Of a stretch of DNA of 64,000 nt, positions 50,846 to 59,773 are shown piece after piece. The DNA comes from Roseateles sp. (GTDB lineage: Bacteria > Pseudomonadota > Gammaproteobacteria > Burkholderiales > Burkholderiaceae_C). Within the stretch, counting starts at the first letter, position 1; each line of letters starts with the position of its first letter. A program made the translations under genes and the position numbers. The stretch lies in assembly GCF_019237615.1 (NCBI RefSeq), contig NZ_JAFAGT010000085.1:124001-188000 (forward strand), written 5' to 3'. The notes beneath the pieces are model-generated. The model saw nothing but the letters and a program-made list of their open reading frames with translations. It was not told the origin of the DNA and made no database searches.

Positions 50846-51253
50846 ATGCGCTTCCCCGCAGCCGTGGGCCGGGATGTCGCCGTGCAGCAATGGCTGGACG
50901 CCGGCGAAGGTGAGCTGGCTGCGCTGGCACGCACCTGGTTCGCGGCCTTGCGCCGCAGCGGCACCGACGTGACCGAGCTTCTGCACGACGGCATGCCCAC
51001 CGCCTGCGTGGGCGACGCGGCCTTCGCCTACGTCAACACCTTCAAGGCCCATGTCAACGTCGGCTTCTTCTGCGGCGCCGAGCTGCCGGACCCGGCGGTC
51101 CTGCTGCAGGGCACGGGCAAGTTCATGCGCCACGTCAAGCTCAGGCCCGGCACGCCGGTCGACGCCGCCGCGCTGCAGGCGCTGATCGACGCGGCCTATG
51201 CCGACGTGAAGGTACGCCTGCGGGCCGAGGCCGCTCAGGCGATGGCCGGGTAG
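50846..51253 (+). CDS. DUF1801-like protein
   Basis: The 135-aa protein has ELLHDGMPTACVGDAAFAYV and FKAHVNVGFFCGAELPDP, then KLRPGTPVDAAALQALIDAA, as in DUF1801/YdhG-like proteins. Function is unknown. The ATG at 50846 is preceded by an in-frame GTG. Its end overlaps the convergent map gene by 19 nt. Confidence 0.75.
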   Translation: MRFPAAVGRDVAVQQWLDAGEGELAALARTWFAALRRSGTDVTELLHDGMPTACVGDAAFAYVNTFKAHVNVGFFCGAELPDPAVLLQGTGKFMRHVKLRPGTPVDAAALQALIDAAYADVKVRLRAEAAQAMAG

Positions 51254-52026
51254 TCGCCCAGGCCGTCCGGCCAGGGCGTCAGGATCTCGAAGCCATCGGC
51301 CGTCACCGCCACCATGTGCTCCCACTGCGCGGAGAGGGAGTGGTCGCGCGTGACCACCGTCCAGCCATCGCTCAGCTCGCGGATGGCTGCGCCGCCCGCA
51401 TTGATCATGGGCTCGATCGTGAAGATCATGCCCTCCTGCAGCTTCAAACCTTCACCGGGCCGTCCGAAGTGGTTGACGTGCGGGTCGTCGTGATAGACGT
51501 CGCCGATGCCGTGGCCACCGTATTCGCGCACCACGCTGAAGCCGGCCGCATGCGCCACCTTCTGGATGGCATGCCCCACGTCGCCCAGCGTCGCGCCCGG
51601 GCGCACCTGGCGGATGCCGGCGCGCAAGGCCTCATAGGTCGTCATCACCAGCCGGCGCGCCAGCACGTTGGCCTCGCCGACGATGAACATGCGGCTGCTG
51701 TCGCCGAACCAGCCGTCCTTGGTCAGCGTGACGTCCACGTTGACGATGTCGCCCTTCTTCAGCCGCTTGTCCCTGGACGGGATGCCATGGCAGACGACGT
51801 GGTTGGGCGAGATGCAGGCCGTCTTCGGATAGCCGTGGTAGCCGACGTTGGACGGGATGCACTTCAGCGTGTTGACGATGTAGTCGCGGCAGAGGTCGTC
51901 CAGCTCCTCGGTCGTCACACCGGGCACCACATGGGGCTTCAGCATGGCCAGCACCTCGGCGATCAGATGCCCGGCCTCGCGGGCCTTGGCCACCTCGGCG
52001 GGCGTGCGCAGCTTGAGGCCCTTCAT
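51235..52026 (-). CDS. map: Methionine aminopeptidase, type I
   Basis: Removes N-terminal Met. The 263-aa protein has the metal ligands in VNVDVTLTKDGWFGDSSRMF (two Asp), the His in REYGGHGIG, Glu in IFTIEPMINAGG and Glu in SAQWEHM. It is type I without zinc-finger extension. The genes usually beside housekeeping map, such as rpsB, are absent, so this is possibly an additional copy. It overlaps the ParD-like gene by 4 nt. Confidence 0.93.
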   Translation of the reverse strand: MKGLKLRTPAEVAKAREAGHLIAEVLAMLKPHVVPGVTTEELDDLCRDYIVNTLKCIPSNVGYHGYPKTACISPNHVVCHGIPSRDKRLKKGDIVNVDVTLTKDGWFGDSSRMFIVGEANVLARRLVMTTYEALRAGIRQVRPGATLGDVGHAIQKVAHAAGFSVVREYGGHGIGDVYHDDPHVNHFGRPGEGLKLQEGMIFTIEPMINAGGAAIRELSDGWTVVTRDHSLSAQWEHMVAVTADGFEILTPWPDGLGDYPAIA

Positions 52027-52271
52027 GCCGCCGCCCCTTTGGCCCTGGCCGGCTGAACCCAGCCGGTCAGCCGCGCCAGATCCAGCCCGCCCTCCTGCTC
52101 GGCGCGGATCAGCAACTGGCAGATCTCGCTGTGCGACAGCTGCGGATGCAACTCGGCCAGCATGCCGATGCGCATCCAGTGCTCGGCCTGCGCGTTGATG
52201 GAACGCGACAAGGCCTGGCTGGCAACGCGCAGGCTCTCATGCAACGGATCGGAGATTTTGACGATTCCCAT
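52023..52271 (-). CDS. ParD-like antitoxin-family protein
   Basis: The 82-aa product begins MGIVKISDPLHESLRVASQA and has SRSINAQAEHWMRIG, matching the ParD_like family (ribbon-helix-helix-type DNA binder). No ParE-type toxin is next to it; instead it is coupled to map. A perfect inverted repeat 10 nt upstream is a likely autoregulatory operator. Confidence 0.8.
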   Translation of the reverse strand: MGIVKISDPLHESLRVASQALSRSINAQAEHWMRIGMLAELHPQLSHSEICQLLIRAEQEGGLDLARLTGWVQPARAKGAAA

Positions 52272-52280
52272 GCGGCAACT

Positions 52281-52308
52281 ATATACGATTCATATACGAA
52301 TCGTATAT
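52281..52308. promoter_or_regulatory. Perfect 11-bp inverted repeat upstream of the ParD-like gene
   Basis: ATATACGATTC (52281-52291) and GAATCGTATAT (52298-52308) flank a 6-nt spacer ATATAC. It lies 10 nt before the ParD-like start and touches the thioesterase stop codon (52308-52310), so it fills the whole intergenic gap. Its AT-rich content contrasts with the neighbouring genes. Probable operator, possibly overlapping the promoter. Confidence 0.75.
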
Positions 52309-52754
52309 CAACATGCCCGGCAAACCACCGCCGCTTCGTAGATGCTGAGGAACTCCGCCGGCATGCGCCGCGGCCTGCCGCCGCTGATGTCGATGCAGAT
52401 CAAGGCCCAGCGCCCGCGCATCAGCGTGACGCCATCCCCGGTGCGGCGCAACTGGAAGCGCCGCTCCATCGTCAGCCTGCCGTCGCTGGCCGTCAGCCAG
52501 GTGCCCAGTTGCAGCGCATCGCCCTCGAAGGACGGCAGCAGATAGTCGTAATGCCCCTCGCGGATCGCCATCGCGCGGTCCATACGGCGATAGTCCGCCA
52601 GGCTCAGGCCCAGCGCCTCGGAATGCGCCCAGCCGGCCTGCTCGCACCACTGCACGTAGACGGCATTGTTGGTGTGGCCCAGGCCGTCGATGTCGCCCGG
52701 CCGGGGCGACAGCGCCAGCAGGAAGGGCGACGCATGGTCCCAGCCTTCGGTCAT
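52308..52754 (-). CDS. Hot-dog acyl-CoA thioesterase (4HBT-type), coupled to jetD
   Basis: The 148-aa protein from MTEGWDHASPFLLAL has the 4HBT-type DxDxxGHxNNAxYxxW pattern (DIDGLGHTNNAVYVQWCEQA), with the active-site Asp. It hydrolyses a thioester; the substrate is not predictable. Its ATG overlaps the jetD stop (ATGA), so it is read with the Wadjet-like cassette. It may be a fellow-traveller or an accessory factor. Confidence 0.85.
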   Translation of the reverse strand: MTEGWDHASPFLLALSPRPGDIDGLGHTNNAVYVQWCEQAGWAHSEALGLSLADYRRMDRAMAIREGHYDYLLPSFEGDALQLGTWLTASDGRLTMERRFQLRRTGDGVTLMRGRWALICIDISGGRPRRMPAEFLSIYEAAVVCRAC

Positions 52755-53923
52755 CACAGCCAGCCCTCCTGTTCGGCCTTCACGCCGCGTTCGTTCAGCG
52801 CATCGCGCAAGGCCGCCAGTTCGGGCGGCAACACCTGCCCGGCAAGTCGGTCCAGCAGCGCGCGGTCGTAGCGGCCCAAGGCCGGCAGGCCGACACGCGA
52901 TAGCCGCCCGGGCTCCATCCCGACCGCGGCCCAGGCCAGGCCGGCATCCACCCAGGGCTGAGCGGCGGCCAGCGCGATCTCTATGCCGGCAGGGTCGGCA
53001 TCGGCACTGACGGCGGCCGGCGCCGGCGCGACCGCCAGCAGCCGGGCCATGGCCTGCGCCCAGGCCCGCGTCGGGCGGCCGGCGATCCACACCAGCGCAT
53101 CGCCGGGTGCACGACGAGTCGCCTGCTTCTCGAAGCTGGCGCGGTTCTCGATCAACCACCAGCGCGCGGGCGGCGTCGCGCCTTGCAAGTTGGCGAGCGC
53201 GTCGACCGGCAGCGTGATGAAGGCCGCCGCCCCCAGGTCCAGCCGTTGCCCGCCCGGCCATTGCAGGCCCAGGTCGCCCGCCAGCGTCAACGTCGGGGCG
53301 AAGGCCGCAATGCCGAGTGCCGGAAGGTCGAAATGCCGCTCCAGCCACTGCCACTCGCCATCGGCAATCGCCTTGGTGTGGCCCAGGCGCAGCGCGAAGT
53401 CGCGACGCAACCCCTGCTCGCCGGCACTCGTCCATGCAAGCAAGGCGTCCAGCAGCGCCGCCCGCGCCTCGGCCGCTGCCGTGGCCATGCGCGACTCGGC
53501 CAGCGCCTGCGCCGCCTCGCCCACCAGTGCGCTCGCCATCAACGCTTCCAGCCGCGCGGCCAGGGCCTCGCGGCGGGCCTCACGCTGGCTGCGCGTCGCC
53601 AGGCCCAGCGCGGCCTGCAGCGCTTCCAGCTCGACCCATTGCAGGGCCGTGCGCTGCCAGCGTCCGCGCGCGAAGCGCTCGGTCACGGTACACAGGCCGG
53701 CCGTCAGCGCCCTGTCGGCCAGGCGCTCTGCCAGTTCGATGCGGACCGGGCCGGCCGCTTCGAGCAAGGCCTGCCAGCGGCGACTTTCGGTGCTGCCGCG
53801 CAGCCAGTCGGCCAGCAGCTCGCGCTCGTCCACGTCCAACGCGGGCAACGCGGCAGGCCAGACCGCCGCGGACGCCCCGCGTTGGCGGCGGTCGCGGCCG
53901 GAGCTCAGCTCACGCGTACTCAC
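52754..53923 (-). CDS. jetD: JetD-like Toprim nuclease subunit (Wadjet-type)
   Basis: The 389-aa protein has an N-terminal helical/winged-helix arm region (about 1-230) and a C-terminal Toprim-type domain. The conserved Glu appears in WWLIENRASFEK (about residue 258) and the Asp-x-Asp in SADADPAGIEIALAAA (about 305). These are the positions expected for a metal-dependent DNA cleavage site. In Wadjet, JetD cuts plasmid DNA after loop extrusion. It is the fourth gene after the SMC complex, with a 14-nt overlap with jetC. Assignment rests strongly on context; the type within Wadjet is not resolved. Confidence 0.75.
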   Translation of the reverse strand: MSTRELSSGRDRRQRGASAAVWPAALPALDVDERELLADWLRGSTESRRWQALLEAAGPVRIELAERLADRALTAGLCTVTERFARGRWQRTALQWVELEALQAALGLATRSQREARREALAARLEALMASALVGEAAQALAESRMATAAAEARAALLDALLAWTSAGEQGLRRDFALRLGHTKAIADGEWQWLERHFDLPALGIAAFAPTLTLAGDLGLQWPGGQRLDLGAAAFITLPVDALANLQGATPPARWWLIENRASFEKQATRRAPGDALVWIAGRPTRAWAQAMARLLAVAPAPAAVSADADPAGIEIALAAAQPWVDAGLAWAAVGMEPGRLSRVGLPALGRYDRALLDRLAGQVLPPELAALRDALNERGVKAEQEGWL

Positions 53924-56726
53924 TGACCTCCGGCCTGCGCGCCAGCACCGCGATCGGCGGCGCCCAGCGCTCGCCGCGCGGCTTCTTGCTCGTCACCAGC
54001 GTGATCTCGCTGGGCTCGAAGACCTCGACGTTGTGCGTGATGGGCGTCGTCAGCAGGTACTGGGCCCGCGTCGAGCGCAGAAAGTGGCCCACCAGCTGGA
54101 TGTTGCGCACGTCCAGGTGGGCAAAAGGCTCGTCGATGAAGACGAAGCCGCCGGGCGTCTCGTCGTCCTTCATCAGGCCCACGAGCAGGATCAGGCTCTT
54201 CAGCACCTGCTGGCCACCCGAAGCCTCGCCGTCGTTCAGGCCCACCTCGCCCTTGCCGTCGAAGTTGAACTTCACGTGCAGGCCGGCCTGGGCCAGCACG
54301 GTGTCGTCGTTGTCCAGATGGGGCAGTTGCGCCTCGGCGACGACGCCGGCCAGTTCACCCAGCTCGGCAACGTTCTTCTTGTAGCGCCGCACCGTGGCCT
54401 TGAGCACGTCGATGTAGCGCTCTCGGGCATTGCTTGCGGCCGTGGCAGCCAGCGCGTTGCTGGCCTTGCGGTCGGACAGCTGGTGAGCCTGTTCGCGCAC
54501 CTGCAGGTCCATGCGGGTGTGGCGGTCGACGACGCTGGCGTCGGTCTCCCAAACCCCGCTGGCCAGCTCCTGGTCGACGTGATGCGAGCGAATCTCGGCC
54601 TGGCGGGCGTTCTCGAACTCGTTGCACAGCGCCGCGAGGGCGATGGCCGTGATCCAGCGCGGCGGGAACTTGGCGCCGGCCTCGCGCGACGCAGCGGCGG
54701 CCTGACTCAGCGCGATGCGGCGGGCCGCATGGTCGCGTGCGGTCTGGGCCTGGCGGGCCTCGCCGTCGGCCAGCTCCTGCTGGGCGCGGTTGTAGCCGTC
54801 CTCGCTGCGCGCCGATGCCTTGACGAGGCGGTCATGCTCGGCCTCCAGCCCCTGCATGCGCGTCGACGCCTCGGCCCGGGCCTGCTTCAGCGCCGGCAGG
54901 CGGGCACGCGCCTCGGCAAACTCGTCGGCGCGCTCGGACAGCTCCTGGGCGGCCTTGTGGCCCTGGGCGGCACGCTGGGCGTCCTTCAGCTGCCGGTCCA
55001 CCTCGCCCTGGGCCTTGACGACACGGGTCAGCTCGGCGTCCAGCCGCAGCAGCTCCCCCTCCAGCGACTGGCGCCGTGCGGCCACCGCGTTGGCGCCGAA
55101 CTGGTGGTCGGCGGGCGAGATGAAGACGCTCCGCCCGCCGCGACCGTCGCGGTAGTAGGCGTCGGCGGTGATCCATTCGCCGCCCACGCCCGAGCCCTCC
55201 TCGGTGCTGGCCACGCAGCGTATGCCGTCGAGCTGGCGCGCCAGCCAGGTCGGCAGCGGAGCGCTGACCTTCAGCGCGGCCAGCAGCGAACCGGGCCGGG
55301 CCTGGGTGACCGGCGCGGCATCGGAGACGACGTAATGGCGGTACTTCTGCTTGGACGCGATGGCGAATGCTCGCGCCTCGTCGCTGCGCTGCTTCAGCAC
55401 CACGACCCAGCGCGAGCCGCGCAGCACGCCCTCGGCGGCTGCGCGCCACTGCTCATCGGCGATGTCTATGCTGTCGGCCACGACATGGTGCGCGATGCCG
55501 GCCTCGTCCAGCGCGCGGCGCAGCGGCGCCACCTCGGGCGGAGGCGGCGGCAGGCGCTTGTCCTTCAGCTCGGCGATCAGGCCCTGCACATGCTTGAGCT
55601 TGTCGTCGGCGCGGGTGTACTCGCCACGCAGCCTGTCCTTGTCAGCCGCCAGCGCCTGGGTGCGCGCAGCCAGCGCGGCGGCATCGGCCTCCACGTCGGC
55701 CAGCGCCTTCAGCTCGTCCTCGCGCTTGACCGCCAGCTCTACCGGCTTCTCGGCCTCGCGGGCTGCGTCGAAGGCGCTGCGGGCGTCGCGGCGCTGCGTG
55801 TCCAGCTCGATGAGGCGAGCCTTGGTGGCCTCATGCTCGGCGAACAGCTCGTGCAGCCTGGCGCGCTTGCCGGACAGCGCGCGCGCGTCGGCGCTGGCGA
55901 ACAGGCGGGCGCGGTGCAGTTCGCGGCCGTCGCGCGCCAGCTTCTCGCGCGACTCGCTCCACTGCATGACCGGCAGCACCTCGGTGGCCAGGCGCTCGCG
56001 CTCCGCGATCCTGAGCTGCCACTGGCGGTGACTGGTCACGCGGTTGGCCAGCTCGCTGAGCTGCGCCTGGGTGCGGGCCAGCTCACCCTCGGCCGCCTCC
56101 ACCTCCTTGGCCAGTTGCTGCTGGTGCGAACGCGCCTGCTCGTAGCGATCCAGCACCTCCTGGTCGCCGAACACCTCGAAGACGAGGCGCAGCAGCTCGC
56201 GCGGGTTGAGGTCGCAGAGCTTGTCGGTCTGCCCCTGCTCCAGTGCCAACACCTTGCCGATGGCCCGCGTCAGGCCCGCGGCCTCAAGCCGGCGGCGCCA
56301 GGCCTCGATGCCCAGCCACTCGCGCTCGCTCTTCTCGGCCAGCTGCTCGATTTCGTGCACACCGTCCAGCATCAGGTAGCGACGCGTCCAGTCTCCGCCC
56401 TGGCGCTCGATGCGGCAGGCCAGCGTCACCTGGTCGGCGTAGAGCAGCGAGGACGCGAACGGCCGGCTGCTGTTCTGCCGGCCGCGCGGACGGTTGTCCA
56501 CCAGCGCGCGCAGCCAGGCCGTCTCGGCGTTGGCGTGGCGGGCATAGGTGCGGAATGTGCGACCGCCCGAGCACTCCAGGCCCAGCAGCGTCCGCAGCGC
56601 GTCCAGGAGCGTCGTCTTGCCCGAGCCGTTGGGACCGGCAATGGTGATGATGGCACCGTCCAGCGGCAGGCTCACGCGCTGGCAGTAGTCCCAGTGCAGC
56701 AGTTCAAGGGTTTGCAGGTGGAACAT
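53910..56726 (-). CDS. jetC: JetC-like SMC ATPase (Wadjet-type, MukB/MksB-related)
   Basis: ATPase of an SMC-like loop-extruding complex. The 938-aa protein has Walker A GPNGSGKTTLLD (residues 31-42), long coiled coils (about 205-420 and 500-760) around a hinge-like centre, the ABC signature ASGGQQVLKSLILLVGL (about 830) and Walker B GFVFIDEPFAHLD (about 858). It is shorter than many JetC/MukB proteins (about 1100 or more). The start overlaps the jetB stop (ATGA). Alternatively a chromosome-maintaining MksB, but the JetD gene favours Wadjet. Confidence 0.82.
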   Translation of the reverse strand: MFHLQTLELLHWDYCQRVSLPLDGAIITIAGPNGSGKTTLLDALRTLLGLECSGGRTFRTYARHANAETAWLRALVDNRPRGRQNSSRPFASSLLYADQVTLACRIERQGGDWTRRYLMLDGVHEIEQLAEKSEREWLGIEAWRRRLEAAGLTRAIGKVLALEQGQTDKLCDLNPRELLRLVFEVFGDQEVLDRYEQARSHQQQLAKEVEAAEGELARTQAQLSELANRVTSHRQWQLRIAERERLATEVLPVMQWSESREKLARDGRELHRARLFASADARALSGKRARLHELFAEHEATKARLIELDTQRRDARSAFDAAREAEKPVELAVKREDELKALADVEADAAALAARTQALAADKDRLRGEYTRADDKLKHVQGLIAELKDKRLPPPPPEVAPLRRALDEAGIAHHVVADSIDIADEQWRAAAEGVLRGSRWVVVLKQRSDEARAFAIASKQKYRHYVVSDAAPVTQARPGSLLAALKVSAPLPTWLARQLDGIRCVASTEEGSGVGGEWITADAYYRDGRGGRSVFISPADHQFGANAVAARRQSLEGELLRLDAELTRVVKAQGEVDRQLKDAQRAAQGHKAAQELSERADEFAEARARLPALKQARAEASTRMQGLEAEHDRLVKASARSEDGYNRAQQELADGEARQAQTARDHAARRIALSQAAAASREAGAKFPPRWITAIALAALCNEFENARQAEIRSHHVDQELASGVWETDASVVDRHTRMDLQVREQAHQLSDRKASNALAATAASNARERYIDVLKATVRRYKKNVAELGELAGVVAEAQLPHLDNDDTVLAQAGLHVKFNFDGKGEVGLNDGEASGGQQVLKSLILLVGLMKDDETPGGFVFIDEPFAHLDVRNIQLVGHFLRSTRAQYLLTTPITHNVEVFEPSEITLVTSKKPRGERWAPPIAVLARRPEVSEYA

Positions 56727-57436
56727 CAGTCTTCGCTCGGCTCTTCTGGTTCCTGGCGGGCGGCCTGGATTTCGGCCAGGGCGGGCGCAGCCAGCGGGTC
56801 GGTGGCGCGGGCCAGCACATCGGCCAGCGCGCCGTCGAGGATGCGCGGCGCGAGCTGGTCGTAGTCCAGCAGCAGGTCCAGCAGCGGTCCCTCGACGATG
56901 TCCTCGCCGCGACGCTGGATGAAGCCGTGACGCTCCAGCAGCTTGAGGTTGGCGTCGATGCGCAGCTTCTTGCCGAGCTGGTCACCGAAGTCGGCCAGCA
57001 GGCTTCGGTAGCTCAGGGAGGGCGACACGCTGGCTGCGGCCGGTACCGGCTTGTCCTTGGCGAACATCTCGCCCTGGTCGTCGCCCGCCGCGTCGCTGCG
57101 GTTGATCTGGCGCTGGCGCTTGGGCAGCACGATGAGGCTCCACAGCACCACCAGCAGCGACACGCCGTCGCGCGGCAGCTCCAGGTTGTTGTTGGCGTTC
57201 AGCCCCACTTCGCCGAAGACGGCGCTCTCGGCCGGGCGCAGCAGCGCGACGCTGACCTGGTCCGCATAGACGTTGTCGACCACCCGCAGGCCCACGCCCG
57301 AGAGGCGCCGGCCCAGTTCTTCCCACAGCTCGGCGTCGATCAGCGCCCGTTTCATCAGCGGGTGGCTGCGCGGCAGCCAGCGCCGCGCCAGCAGTTGGGC
57401 CGCGAGGCTCGCGGCATCGTCCAGCGTGGAGTTCAT
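56726..57436 (-). CDS. jetB: JetB-like KITE subunit (MksE-related)
   Basis: The 236-aa protein, mostly winged-helix-like, from MNSTLDDAASLAAQLL. It shows LNANNNLELPRDGVSLLVVL (a segment typical of the MksE/DUF4194 group) and SYRSLLADFGDQLGKKLRID. It would bind the kleisin next to the SMC heads. It overlaps jetA by 4 nt (ATGA) and jetC by 1 nt. The acidic C-terminal tail is unremarkable. Confidence 0.78.
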   Translation of the reverse strand: MNSTLDDAASLAAQLLARRWLPRSHPLMKRALIDAELWEELGRRLSGVGLRVVDNVYADQVSVALLRPAESAVFGEVGLNANNNLELPRDGVSLLVVLWSLIVLPKRQRQINRSDAAGDDQGEMFAKDKPVPAAASVSPSLSYRSLLADFGDQLGKKLRIDANLKLLERHGFIQRRGEDIVEGPLLDLLLDYDQLAPRILDGALADVLARATDPLAAPALAEIQAARQEPEEPSED

Positions 57437-58734
57437 TCGGTGTCGGTCTCGGAAAGGGTGTGCAGTTCGCCGCGGCTCATCCACGCGACGAATTCGTCAT
57501 CGATGGCGCCCTGCTCGGCGCTCCAGCGCACCCGCCAGGGCTGGCGCGCCATGTCGCCGGTGGCGCCTTTCAGGTGGCGGGCCTGGGCGTCGCCCAGCAG
57601 CGGCAGCAGCTGCGCGCGGTAGGCGGCTGACGCGTAGCTGCCGCCCAGCACGGCCGGGCCGACGGGCTGCGTGCCCTGACCCTCGGCCGTCCAGCCGTTC
57701 AGCAGCGCCTGCAGCGCGTCCAGCTCGGGCGGCAGGCTCAGCACCTCCAGCCGGCCATCGGGCGCGGAGCGGGCCTGCGGCAGGCCGGCGGCCTCGGGCT
57801 TGGCCGGACGGTCACGCTCGAACTCGGCCTCGGCGCCATCCACCAGTTCCTGGGCCGCCACCATGACGGGCTGCACGCCGGTGGACAAGGCCTCGCCCAG
57901 CAGCGCGTGCAGCTCCGGGACCCGCTGCAGCCATTGCCGCACGTCGGTCGTCGTCACGCCCGTGGAGCCCAGTGTGACGCGCTGGCGGTCGGCCTGCTGC
58001 AAGGCGCGGTTGAACTGGCTGGCCATGACCAGCAGCCCCGCCTGGGCATGGCCCAGCTCTCGCGCCAGCCGCTCCAGCCGGCCATCGCCCTGGGCCTGCT
58101 CAATGATGGCCTTGAGCGCCTCGCCGGCCCGGTCCACCAGCGCCAGCGCGCGCTCGAAGCGGGTGCGCGCGCGGCGCAGCTGAAACTCGCTGCCGCTGGC
58201 CATCGCGTCGGCGAACTCCTCGCGCAACCGCTGCAACTGGGCCTGCAGATGGCGCAGCTGCTGGGGCTGCAGCAGGCCCAATTGGTGGGCGCCGGCCACG
58301 CCGGCCAACAGCGCCCCGAGGTCGGCGTCCTCGCCGGCGTCCTCGGCAGTGAGCGGCTGCAGCATGCCGGCCAGCTGCTGGGCCAGCGACGTGATCGCAT
58401 AAGTCTGCGTGGAGGCGTCCCAGCTCAGCAGCTCAGCCTCGCGCAGGCGCTTCAGCACCGTCTCCAGCGCGTCTTCGCGCAGCTGGTGGAAGGCCTGGTT
58501 CAAGGCCTCGCGCGTCAGCCGCGCGGCCGGCAGCGCCATCAGCTCCAGGAAAACCCAGACGCGCAGCCTGACCCAGCCGGCCTCGCCGCCGAACAGCGCA
58601 CGCTGGGCGGCGATCAGCGCCTCCTGGCGCTCCAGCTGCCACCACAGCAGCGAATCGGCCGGCGCGGCGCCGTCGCGGAAGAACTCGTCAGCCGGGCGCG
58701 GCTCGTCGGGGGCGTTGGGGCGGTGCTCGGACAT
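57433..58734 (-). CDS. jetA: JetA-like kleisin subunit (MksF-related)
   Basis: The 433-aa protein from MSEHRPNAPDEPRPADEF. It has an N-terminal winged-helix-like region, a helical middle (about 120-260, with coiled-coil-like spacing) and a C-terminal winged helix near TGDMARQPWRVRWSAEQGAI. No catalytic motif. It is the first gene of the cassette, as in jetABCD. Sequence identity to known JetA is likely low; the call leans on the gene order and the neighbouring JetB, C and D. Confidence 0.7.
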   Translation of the reverse strand: MSEHRPNAPDEPRPADEFFRDGAAPADSLLWWQLERQEALIAAQRALFGGEAGWVRLRVWVFLELMALPAARLTREALNQAFHQLREDALETVLKRLREAELLSWDASTQTYAITSLAQQLAGMLQPLTAEDAGEDADLGALLAGVAGAHQLGLLQPQQLRHLQAQLQRLREEFADAMASGSEFQLRRARTRFERALALVDRAGEALKAIIEQAQGDGRLERLARELGHAQAGLLVMASQFNRALQQADRQRVTLGSTGVTTTDVRQWLQRVPELHALLGEALSTGVQPVMVAAQELVDGAEAEFERDRPAKPEAAGLPQARSAPDGRLEVLSLPPELDALQALLNGWTAEGQGTQPVGPAVLGGSYASAAYRAQLLPLLGDAQARHLKGATGDMARQPWRVRWSAEQGAIDDEFVAWMSRGELHTLSETDTE

Positions 58735-58897
58735 GGGGCGCGGATTATCGACGCCCTTCCCCACTCGATAGCTAGGGATGTCGGAGACCTTGACAATCGC
58801 CCACCGAACGCGCCGTTACATGGCCTACCCCCATGGGACCGCGGCGGTGCTGGCATCGAATGTGCATGGCCCATTGCCTCAATCGGAGGAACCCGAG

Positions 58898-59773
58898 ATG
58901 CCCCATCGCACATTGCTCGCCGCCGCCGCGCTCGCGATCGCAGCCATCGTCCCCCATCAGGCCAGGGCCGGCATCGTCATCAACTACGCCAGCGGCTTCA
59001 GCGGCGCCTGCGGCAGCGGCCTGACCTGCGTGGGCAACGCGGCGGTGAACGGCAGCGCGCTGCGCCTGACGCCGGCCGCCCAGAGCCAGGCCGGCGCTGG
59101 CTACAGCACCACGGCCATCACGCTGGGCGCCGGCGCCACCTTCAGCACGAGCTTCCAGTTCCAGCTGACCCAGCCCGGCGGCATCGCCCCCGCCGACGGC
59201 CTGACCTTCGTGCTGGCCCAGGGCACATCGGGCCTGGGGAGCGCCGGAGGCGGCATGGGTTACCAAGGCGTGGGCAACAGCGTCGCCATCGAGTTCGACA
59301 CCTACTGGAACAGCTTCGACCCCAACAGCAACCATGTCGGCGTGGACACCAATGGCTCGTTGAGCAGCCTGATCACCGTCAACCCCTACGGCGTCGCCTT
59401 CTGCGACTTCACTGCCAACAGCTACGCCGGCGACGGCTGCATGAGCAACGGCAAGGTCTGGTCGGCCTTCATCACCTACGACGGCAGCACCCAGAAGCTC
59501 AGCGTCAGCGTGCAGCAGCAGGGCATGGCGCTGATCCAGCTGATCAACGACTACAGCATAGACATTGCCGGCATCCTGGGCGCCACCGACGCCTATGTCG
59601 GCTTCACGGCCGCGACGGGCGCCGGCGTGGAGAATCACGACATCCTGAGCTGGCAACTGGCCAACGACACCTCCATCGTCGCCCCCGAAAACGAGCTGCC
59701 CGAGCCGGCCAGCCTGGCCCTGCTGGGCCTGGCCGGCGTCGCGTCGCTGCGGGCAGGCCGCCGCCGCGCCTGA
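58898..59773 (+). CDS. PEP-CTERM-anchored legume-lectin-like secreted protein
   Basis: The 291-aa product has a signal peptide (to about residue 24) and an L-type lectin-like beta domain: PADGLTFVLAQGTSGLG, NSVAIEFDTYWNS, and NHVGVDTNGSLSSL resemble the metal- and sugar-binding strands of bacterial legume-like lectins. The C terminus has the PEP-CTERM signal LPEPASLALLGLAGVASLRA with a basic RRRA tail for exosortase processing. GGAGGA precedes the ATG at 58898; the longer upstream frame lacks homology. A TTGACA box at 58790-58795 may be a -35 element. Sugar specificity is unknown. Confidence 0.88.
   Translation: MPHRTLLAAAALAIAAIVPHQARAGIVINYASGFSGACGSGLTCVGNAAVNGSALRLTPAAQSQAGAGYSTTAITLGAGATFSTSFQFQLTQPGGIAPADGLTFVLAQGTSGLGSAGGGMGYQGVGNSVAIEFDTYWNSFDPNSNHVGVDTNGSLSSLITVNPYGVAFCDFTANSYAGDGCMSNGKVWSAFITYDGSTQKLSVSVQQQGMALIQLINDYSIDIAGILGATDAYVGFTAATGAGVENHDILSWQLANDTSIVAPENELPEPASLALLGLAGVASLRAGRRRA

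What the first reader, a model, noticed from the sequence alone, without database searches (positions are those of the whole stretch)
52308..58734. Wadjet-like (JetABCD) cassette with a translationally coupled thioesterase
Four overlapping genes encode a kleisin-like, KITE-like, SMC-like ATPase (Walker A, signature and Walker B all visible) and a Toprim-type protein with Glu and Asp-x-Asp motifs. This is the layout of Wadjet anti-plasmid systems. The SMC protein is short (938 aa), and the JetA part is diverged, so it may be an unusual subtype. A hot-dog thioesterase is attached by an ATGA overlap.
Basis: partly seen in the sequence, partly recalled or inferred. Interest (0 to 1): 0.75.

Follow-up and report, generated by a model that had tools for sequence, protein, structure and literature searches.

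The report
SMC complex with optional plasmid-cutting nuclease
Four bacterial genes encode a ring-shaped DNA motor joined to a DNA-cutting enzyme that probably destroys plasmids; many relatives keep the motor but lack the cutter, which makes the link between plasmid defence and chromosome folding testable.

Summary
In detail: on the minus strand, overlapping genes encode a kleisin-like (A), KITE-like (B) and SMC protein (C) and a Toprim protein (D). D's best fold matches are topoisomerase VI-A/Spo11, and its catalytic Glu and DxD are invariant in 22 rows. This is a MksBEFG/Wadjet-type operon whose A, B and D fall below Pfam and NCBIfam cut-offs. The thioesterase is probably not a component: it lies near C in 15 of 150 loci, all from this genus.

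The main result is that D is optional. A, B and C share a locus in 147 of 150, but D is intact or cut only by a contig end in 38, broken in 2, absent in 106, unknown in 4; the C tree needs 17 changes of D status. D and C trees mostly agree, suggesting an old four-gene operon that often lost its nuclease, though D was also exchanged at least once. A, B and C stay under purifying selection without D. Five near-complete genomes of one genus have A-B-C, no D, and no detectable Smc, ScpA or ScpB, so this complex may be their only condensin.

Best reading: a Burkholderiales MksBEF condensin with a detachable plasmid nuclease, attached here. A published review proposes such a loss for Pseudomonas. 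No function was tested.

The parts
57433..58734 (-). Gene A, MksF/JetA-like kleisin (433 aa)
   Evidence: No PADLOC or NCBIfam family, and only three unrelated Pfam matches below cut-off. AlphaFold model pLDDT 82; the top three Foldseek matches are chains of MukE-MukF or MukBEF entries, by length probably MukF, best E 0.0075 and TM 0.11-0.18, weak. Found with B and C in 147 of 150 loci.
56726..57436 (-). Gene B, MksE/JetB-like KITE (236 aa)
   Evidence: Weak PADLOC JetB1 E 0.0078 and DUF4194 E 0.028, below cut-off; 4-nt overlap with A; conserved in 29 rows.
53910..56726 (-). Gene C, MksB/JetC-like SMC ATPase (938 aa)
   Evidence: SMC_N E 3e-14; PADLOC mad3 1.2e-22 and JetC1 2.7e-21; NCBIfam SMC_prok_B 1.1e-19, below cut-off. 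The profile hits JetC in PDB (8dk2 E 1.1e-07) with its best stretch around Walker A, and SMC1 equally well. C in 20 of 20 genus genomes.
56610..56636 (-). Walker A of C (GPNGSGKTT, residues 31-39)
   Evidence: Read from the sequence; invariant in 8 rows.
54207..54221 (-). ABC signature of C (SGGQQ, residues 836-840)
   Evidence: Read from the sequence; invariant in 8 rows.
54126..54149 (-). Walker B of C (GFVFIDEP, residues 860-867)
   Evidence: Read from the sequence; invariant in 8 rows.
52754..53923 (-). Gene D, MksG/JetD-like CAP-Toprim nuclease (389 aa, GTG start)
   Evidence: PADLOC JetD1 E 9.1e-11 over residues 200-320; AlphaFold pLDDT 91, pTM 0.57; Foldseek topoisomerase VI-A 1d3y E 9.6e-09 and Spo11 8urq E 2.6e-07, TM to the model 0.34-0.39 in the nine best rows. 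Optional: 38 of 150 loci.
53147..53149 (-). Predicted catalytic Glu259 of the D Toprim
   Evidence: Invariant in 22 rows; follows model strand 254-258.
52994..53002 (-). Predicted metal-binding Asp308-x-Asp310 of the D Toprim
   Evidence: Invariant in 22 rows; follows model strand 303-306.
52308..52754 (-). 4HBT thioesterase: adjacent, judged not part of the system
   Evidence: 4HBT_2 E 1e-12; within 4 kb downstream of C in 15 of 150 loci, all from the window's genus, D present or absent.

Best explanation
This is a MksBEFG (Wadjet-type) operon of a Burkholderiales MksBEF family that the curated Wadjet profiles barely reach. Proteins A, B and C probably form a MukBEF-like SMC complex that moves along DNA with ATP. 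In this genome D is a Toprim nuclease that the complex probably switches on when it meets small circular DNA, restricting plasmids. The A-B-C core has a second role that does not need D, most likely chromosome organisation or segregation. D is therefore a detachable effector on a condensin and has probably been lost many times. Shown here: gene content and motifs, a predicted fold for D, patchy D among orthologous loci, broad D-C co-inheritance, purifying selection without D, and lack of detectable Smc-ScpAB in five A-B-C-bearing genomes. Inferred: motor activity, plasmid cutting, chromosome role and the direction of change.
For: A and B are in the same locus as C in 147 of 150 loci; D is in 38, broken in 2, absent in 106 and unknown in 4 (labels, with L183, cut by a contig end, set to present by hand). 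The C tree of 151 rows needs 17 changes of D status, at least 15 forced by well-supported branches. In 7 of 12 compared pairs with and without D, downstream genes are shared; in L070/L071 the first 2 kb differ by a 1,201-bp shift. D and C trees of 38 rows (37 loci and the window): Mantel r 0.85, 25 of 35 splits shared; 23 splits in each supported at 95 or more, 18 shared, 0 in conflict. A genome outside the order has A-B-C-D (L200). dN/dS of A, B and C in 12 D-less pairs: medians 0.068, 0.058 and 0.054. G039, G304, G364, G401 and G418 have C, A and B (G039; the others), and no D, Smc, ScpB or ScpA. D fold.
Against: No function was tested. A type III Wadjet in another Burkholderiales host, Cupriavidus necator, showed no plasmid phenotype when deleted (PMC12645576, passages), so an intact operon need not restrict plasmids. 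No solved JetD chain was found by sequence or in the 50 fold rows shown. C is no closer to JetC than to SMC1 in PDB. D ancestral with no regain costs 29-30 losses against 17 changes if gains are allowed. D and C conflict at support 80: the window's C is 95% identical to that of G010 = L033 but its D only 75%, and L033's D groups elsewhere, so D has probably been exchanged at least once. 5 of 12 compared pairs share no downstream genes, and L120 has other sequence in place of D. L126 has C and D but no A or B in the 3.4 kb upstream. G000 keeps Smc, ScpA and ScpB. C was found in 72 of 399 genomes of the order, so the core is not generally essential. No column of A, B or C tracked D status in up to 17 hand-chosen pairs.
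Confidence: 0.7

Rival explanations
1. A purely defensive Wadjet system. A-B-C-D restricts plasmids, and the D-less loci are decaying or use another nuclease.
For: Four-gene layout and JetD1 match; known JetABCD systems cleave circular DNA (PMC10586767, passages). Two loci show what look like broken D genes: L023 and, from a short weak match, L149.
Against: A, B and C remain under strong purifying selection in 12 D-less pairs. No D elsewhere in 11 D-less genus genomes by profile (in which only part of the first-look candidates of many genomes were scored). No PADLOC hit among 10 flanking proteins. 2 of 72,556 plasmid records hold a match, both partial. Five genomes with the core lack detectable Smc-ScpAB.
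Confidence: 0.15
2. A purely chromosomal MksBEF condensin. D is a topoisomerase-like or processing factor for chromosome work and not a defence effector.
For: Fixed chromosomal locus in the genus; topoisomerase VI-A/Spo11-like fold; D absent from 106 of 150 loci.
Against: The JetD/MksG relatives are nucleases tied to plasmid restriction (PMC10123090, passages). D's median dN/dS (0.169) exceeds that of A and C (0.105, 0.081) and is near that of B (0.16) in 9 D-bearing pairs, and D is often absent, as expected of a defence effector. No tyrosine is invariant in 22 rows.
Confidence: 0.12
3. D was gained or exchanged repeatedly by condensins (bolt-on defence), rather than mainly lost.
For: 17 changes with free gain and loss against 29-30 losses if D is never regained. 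D of the window and L033 differ far more than their C (75% against 95% identical), and L033's D groups with L053 and L055 (support 98/88).
Against: No conflict between D and C trees where both are supported at 95 or more. D lies just after C on the same strand in 38 of 38 D-bearing loci. Remnants are seen. Whole-operon transfer would also give agreement, so gain is not excluded.
Confidence: 0.25

Closest known systems
MksBEFG / Wadjet (JetABCD), nearest type I by PADLOC names
   Same: Same gene order kleisin-KITE-SMC-Toprim; JetC1 and JetD1 profile matches; D has a topoisomerase VI-A-like fold, as described for JetD/MksG (PMC10123090, passages).
   Different: No JetA match and JetB only E 0.008; no Pfam match above cut-off for A, B or D. 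Profiles of A, B and D hit no PDB chain by sequence up to E 1; that of C hits JetC with its best stretch around Walker A. 106 of 150 orthologous loci lack D.
MksBEF of Pseudomonas aeruginosa (condensin without nuclease)
   Same: Nuclease-less kleisin-KITE-SMC complex beside Smc-ScpAB; [quoted passage not shown]
   Different: Its sequence was not compared here. In the class sample the window's C family appears, at E 1e-30, in 2 of 377 genomes, one of them the window's own. Here D is present or absent among orthologues.
MukBEF
   Same: A's best fold matches, weak, are chains of MukBEF or MukE-MukF entries. MukBEF is a known case of a complex that replaced Smc-ScpAB (PMC10586767, passage).
   Different: MukB N-terminal profile below cut-off (E 0.056); the SMC is much shorter than MukB (MukB length recalled).

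Membership tests
Wadjet / MksBEFG | Four-gene operon kleisin-KITE-SMC-Toprim nuclease in this order | tested here: met
   overlapping genes 58734-52754. The kleisin and KITE labels rest on weak matches and on position.
Wadjet / MksBEFG | SMC head with Walker A, signature and Walker B | tested here: met
Wadjet / MksBEFG | JetD-type nuclease with catalytic Glu and DxD in a Toprim domain | tested here: met
   Solved JetD chains were not among the matches shown.
Wadjet / MksBEFG | JetA and JetB recognised by Wadjet or Pfam profiles | tested here: not met
   A: no family above cut-off. B: JetB1 E 0.0078 and DUF4194 below cut-off. PADLOC's own system rules were not run.
Wadjet / MksBEFG | JetA kleisin and JetB KITE folds | tested here: inconclusive
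   A resembles chains of MukBEF entries only weakly; B was not modelled.
Wadjet / MksBEFG | Restriction of circular plasmids | not testable with these tools
   Needs transformation or cleavage assays.
Wadjet as a mobile defence-island system | Neighbourhood of other defence genes | tested here: not met
   0 of 10 flanking proteins hit PADLOC at E 0.001; several neighbours recur in the genus. The rest of the window was not scanned.
MksBEF condensin | Kleisin, KITE and short-armed SMC encoded together on the chromosome | tested here: met
   147 of 150 loci; 2 of 72,556 plasmid records, partial. Kleisin and KITE labels rest on weak matches.
MksBEF condensin | Role in chromosome organisation | tested here: inconclusive
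   Indirect: selection without D; five genomes lack detectable Smc, ScpA and ScpB. No phenotype tested.
MukBEF | MukB N-terminal domain above cut-off | tested here: not met
   PF04310 13.6 bits against cut-off 23.

The most novel reading that the evidence does not exclude
One orthologous SMC complex is both a chromosome condensin and a plasmid-restriction sensor, and the nuclease is a detachable part lost more than a dozen times within one bacterial order. In one genus the nuclease-free form has replaced Smc-ScpAB and is the only condensin, so a defence machine turned into a housekeeping chromosome organiser within a traceable lineage.
Probability: 0.4. Interest if true: 0.82.

Novelty: new variant of a known kind. 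Interest (0 to 1): 0.62.

Why it matters
[quoted passage not shown] These loci give close natural pairs with and without the nuclease at the same chromosomal place, including species of one genus. They also give five genomes of one genus in which the nuclease-free complex may be the only condensin. That allows a direct test of whether defence and chromosome folding are one activity, and of what JetABC does on the chromosome.

Tried and rejected
Thioesterase as a fifth component: rejected (15 of 150 loci).

Defence island: 10 flanking proteins scanned with PADLOC, 0 hits; not supported. The rest of the window was not scanned.

D supplied from elsewhere in D-less genomes: profile A4 over 60 genomes found D-like matches in 12: nine genus genomes (eight full, G016 cut by a contig end) and G023 (full) at the locus, G029 in pieces, and G031 with a diverged copy beside a different SMC (L201). 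None of the 11 D-less genus genomes had one. A divergent nuclease, or one among unscored candidates, could be missed.

Residues of A, B or C tracking D status: 16 pairs for A and B, 17 for C, hand-chosen and not all strictly independent; best columns 5-6 pairs to 0-1 among 1,676 columns; no signal.

PDB sequence searches with profiles of A, B and D: no matches up to E 1. Single-sequence phmmer of D: none. The viral structure library, viral contigs and phage records were not searched.

dN/dS used hand-picked close pairs, some sharing members, and Nei-Gojobori with high dS in some pairs; read it as strong constraint, not as exact numbers. Five mixed pairs (with against without D) gave medians 0.112, 0.15 and 0.076 for A, B and C. 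The C trees used the quick method without the mixture model, and long branches were flagged.

To offset this, 58 of the 72 C-positive loci of the order sample were fetched and added. Of the 29 loci L023-L051, 12 went into the trees; of the other 17, L030-L032 carry canonical smc, L028 (G011) and L029 (G001) are cut, and L034-L036, L038-L040, L044-L047, L050 and L051 repeat named loci, judged by equal contig lengths. G011 (83% complete) has 5.3 kb after a partial C with neither D nor E and was not counted. D was called absent where no match was found and at least 1,300 bases followed C. L183 was first labelled as broken and set to present because its contig ends inside D.

Zero strong conflicts between the D and C trees was rechecked, because the first script could have failed to read support labels; it had not.

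Literature: five searches. I saw listings with starts of abstracts, and passages of six papers, and found no account of this Burkholderiales pattern. Petrushenko et al. 2011, the founding MksBEF paper, is not held and may already describe families with and without MksG, so priority is not claimed.
Full report
WHAT IS THERE. A is 58734-57433 (433 aa), B 57436-56726 (236 aa), C 56726-53910 (938 aa), D 53923-52754 (389 aa, GTG start) and the thioesterase E 52754-52308. A and B overlap by ATGA, B and C by 1 nt, C and D by 14 nt, and D and E by 1 nt (TGATG, not ATGA). The window is G000:C29:124001-188000 of a draft genome; its named neighbours in the C tree are Pelomonas and Roseateles.

FAMILIES. 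C is an SMC-type ATPase: SMC_N E 3e-14, PADLOC mad3 1.2e-22 and JetC1 2.7e-21, NCBIfam SMC_prok_B 1.1e-19 but far below its cut-off. Its profile hits a solved JetC chain (8dk2, 1.1e-07) with its best stretch around Walker A, and an SMC1 chain equally well (1w1w, 1.2e-07), so C alone does not say Wadjet. D matches PADLOC JetD1 at 9.1e-11 over residues 200-320 but no Pfam family above cut-off. B has only weak JetB1 (0.0078) and DUF4194 (0.028) matches. A has three unrelated Pfam matches below cut-off and nothing else. None of A, B or D has an NCBIfam match. E is a 4HBT thioesterase (1e-12). The filing under MksBEFG/Wadjet therefore rests on gene order plus D.

FOLDS. D modelled at pLDDT 91, pTM 0.57. 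Its nine PDB matches with E at or below 0.001 are all topoisomerase VI or Spo11 chains (1d3y 9.6e-09; 8urq 2.6e-07; for 2zbk the title says only type II topoisomerase), with TM to the model of 0.34-0.39. That kinship is the one described for JetD/MksG (PMC10586767 and PMC10123090, passages). Solved JetD chains did not appear in the 50 rows shown, nor by sequence. Glu259 and Asp308-x-Asp310 are invariant in 22 rows and no tyrosine is. A modelled at pLDDT 82; its top three matches are chains of MukE-MukF or MukBEF entries, by length probably MukF, but weak (best E 0.0075, none at 0.001, TM 0.11-0.18). So A as a MukF-like kleisin is likely, not proven. B was not modelled.

A FIXED LOCUS OF THE GENUS. 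C was found in 20 of 20 genomes of the genus, two of them only in part at contig ends. The flanking dioxygenase, thioesterase, ParD-like and methionine aminopeptidase genes recur around it in many of these genomes. Ten flanking proteins gave no PADLOC hit. Among 72,556 plasmid records only two Variovorax records matched, each over 49% of C. This is not the usual setting of a mobile defence island.

D IS OPTIONAL. In the genus, D is at the locus in 9 of 20 genomes (one cut by a contig end); the other 11 show no D by profile. In 9 of those 11 the thioesterase follows C directly; in G011, a fragmentary assembly, 5.3 kb after C hold neither D nor E; in G001 the contig ends inside C. I then took 80 named loci, 12 other relatives and 58 loci from the order sample, 150 in all. 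A and B matches lie in the same locus as C in 147. The three misses are L103 and L105, near contig ends, and L126, which has C and D but no A or B in the 3.4 kb upstream. D is intact or cut only by a contig end in 38, broken in 2, absent in 106 and undecidable in 4. On the C tree of these and the window (151 rows) D status changes at least 17 times, 15 of them forced by branches with strong support. In 7 of 12 compared pairs with and without D, downstream genes are shared. The cleanest is Roseateles toxinivorans (L070, with D) against L071 (without): genes in the first 2 kb are shifted by 1,201 bp. In L120 other sequence stands where L123 has D. Five pairs share no downstream gene.

LOSS OR GAIN. 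D and C trees for 38 rows (37 loci and the window) broadly agree: Mantel r 0.85 (0 of 999 permutations as high), 25 of 35 splits shared. Of 23 splits in each tree supported at 95 or more by both measures, 18 are shared and none conflict; at 80 there are two conflicting pairs. Both involve where L033's D goes: its C is 95% identical to the window's, its D only 75%, and its D groups with L053 and L055. So D has probably been exchanged at least once inside the genus. D lies just after C on the same strand in 38 of 38. Remnants of D remain at L023 and, from a short weak match, L149. A genome outside the order carries A-B-C-D (L200). On balance this favours an old four-gene operon with repeated loss. 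Against it, losses alone number 29-30, D seems able to move by itself, and transfer of whole operons would also make the trees agree.

THE CORE STAYS CONSTRAINED WITHOUT D. In 12 D-less pairs median dN/dS is 0.068 for A, 0.058 for B and 0.054 for C. In 9 D-bearing pairs it is 0.105, 0.16 and 0.081, and 0.169 for D itself; in 5 mixed pairs 0.112, 0.15 and 0.076. The pairs were hand-picked and come from different lineages, so only the strong constraint is to be read from them.

POSSIBLE SOLE CONDENSIN. Of 399 genomes of the order, 72 carry C, and 13 of these 72 hold a match to D, one of them (G187) only a short remnant. Canonical Smc is missing at E 1e-60 from 5 of the 72, all of genus g21: G039, G304, G364, G401 and G418, 99-100% complete. 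The same five lack ScpB and ScpA. Five genomes of other genera in the same family (G086, G324, G158, G125 and G260) have both and also have Smc. The MukB N-terminal profile gives only short partial hits in the five g21 genomes, among them the family's own C; one hit in G401, inside a 521-codon frame, just passes the cut-off. Other unrecognised condensins cannot be excluded, and g21 has no name in these tools.

HOW IT MOST LIKELY WORKS. Known JetABC complexes sense small circular DNA and trigger JetD to cut (PMC10586767, passages). In this genome the intact four-gene set most likely does the same. The kept core in D-less relatives most likely folds or segregates the chromosome, as reported for MksBEF in P. 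aeruginosa (same review, and PMC7485682, passages). A warning: a type III Wadjet in Cupriavidus necator gave no plasmid phenotype when deleted (PMC12645576, passages). This host also keeps Smc-ScpAB, so a chromosome role here may be minor.

WHAT IS NEW. The review already proposes that P. aeruginosa MksBEF arose by loss of JetD and calls the origin of Wadjet unresolved. What this window adds is a distinct family, found mostly in Burkholderiales here (72 of 399 genomes of the order; 2 of 377 in the class sample), in which presence and absence of the nuclease can be seen among orthologues, down to species of one genus, and five genomes in which the core may stand in for Smc-ScpAB. The five searches showed no account of this in what I saw, but the founding MksBEF paper could not be read.

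Noticed in passing
genome G043 (no window coordinates): A 100% complete 1.9 Mb genome of the same order lacks detectable Smc over cut-off (best E 3e-5), ScpA, ScpB, MukB and this MksB family.
   Followed up: partly
genome G245, C1:113811-117280: Canonical smc matches as two adjacent pieces in separate open frames, so it may be split or broken in a genome that also carries the MksBEF family.
   Followed up: no
L201 (G031 C83): A different, more distant SMC-like gene followed by a JetD-like gene on a short contig of a family member in which the window's MksB family was not found.
   Followed up: partly
L033 against the window, gene D: D proteins are 75% identical although the C proteins are 95% identical, and L033's D groups with other lineages: D seems to have been swapped at this locus.
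   Followed up: partly
L126: C and D are adjacent, but no A or B match lies in the 3.4 kb upstream on the contig.
   Followed up: partly
window 51235-52271: A ParD-like antitoxin gene directly precedes and overlaps a methionine aminopeptidase gene, with no toxin gene noted beside it; both genes are found in 13 of 19 genus loci read.
   Followed up: partly
window 58892-59773: A legume-lectin-domain protein with a C-terminal stretch that looks like a PEP-CTERM sorting signal (my reading) is divergent from gene A.
   Followed up: no
plasmids NZ_LR594663.1 and NZ_LR594690.1: Two large Variovorax plasmids carry partial matches to C at 55% identity covering 49% of it.
   Followed up: no
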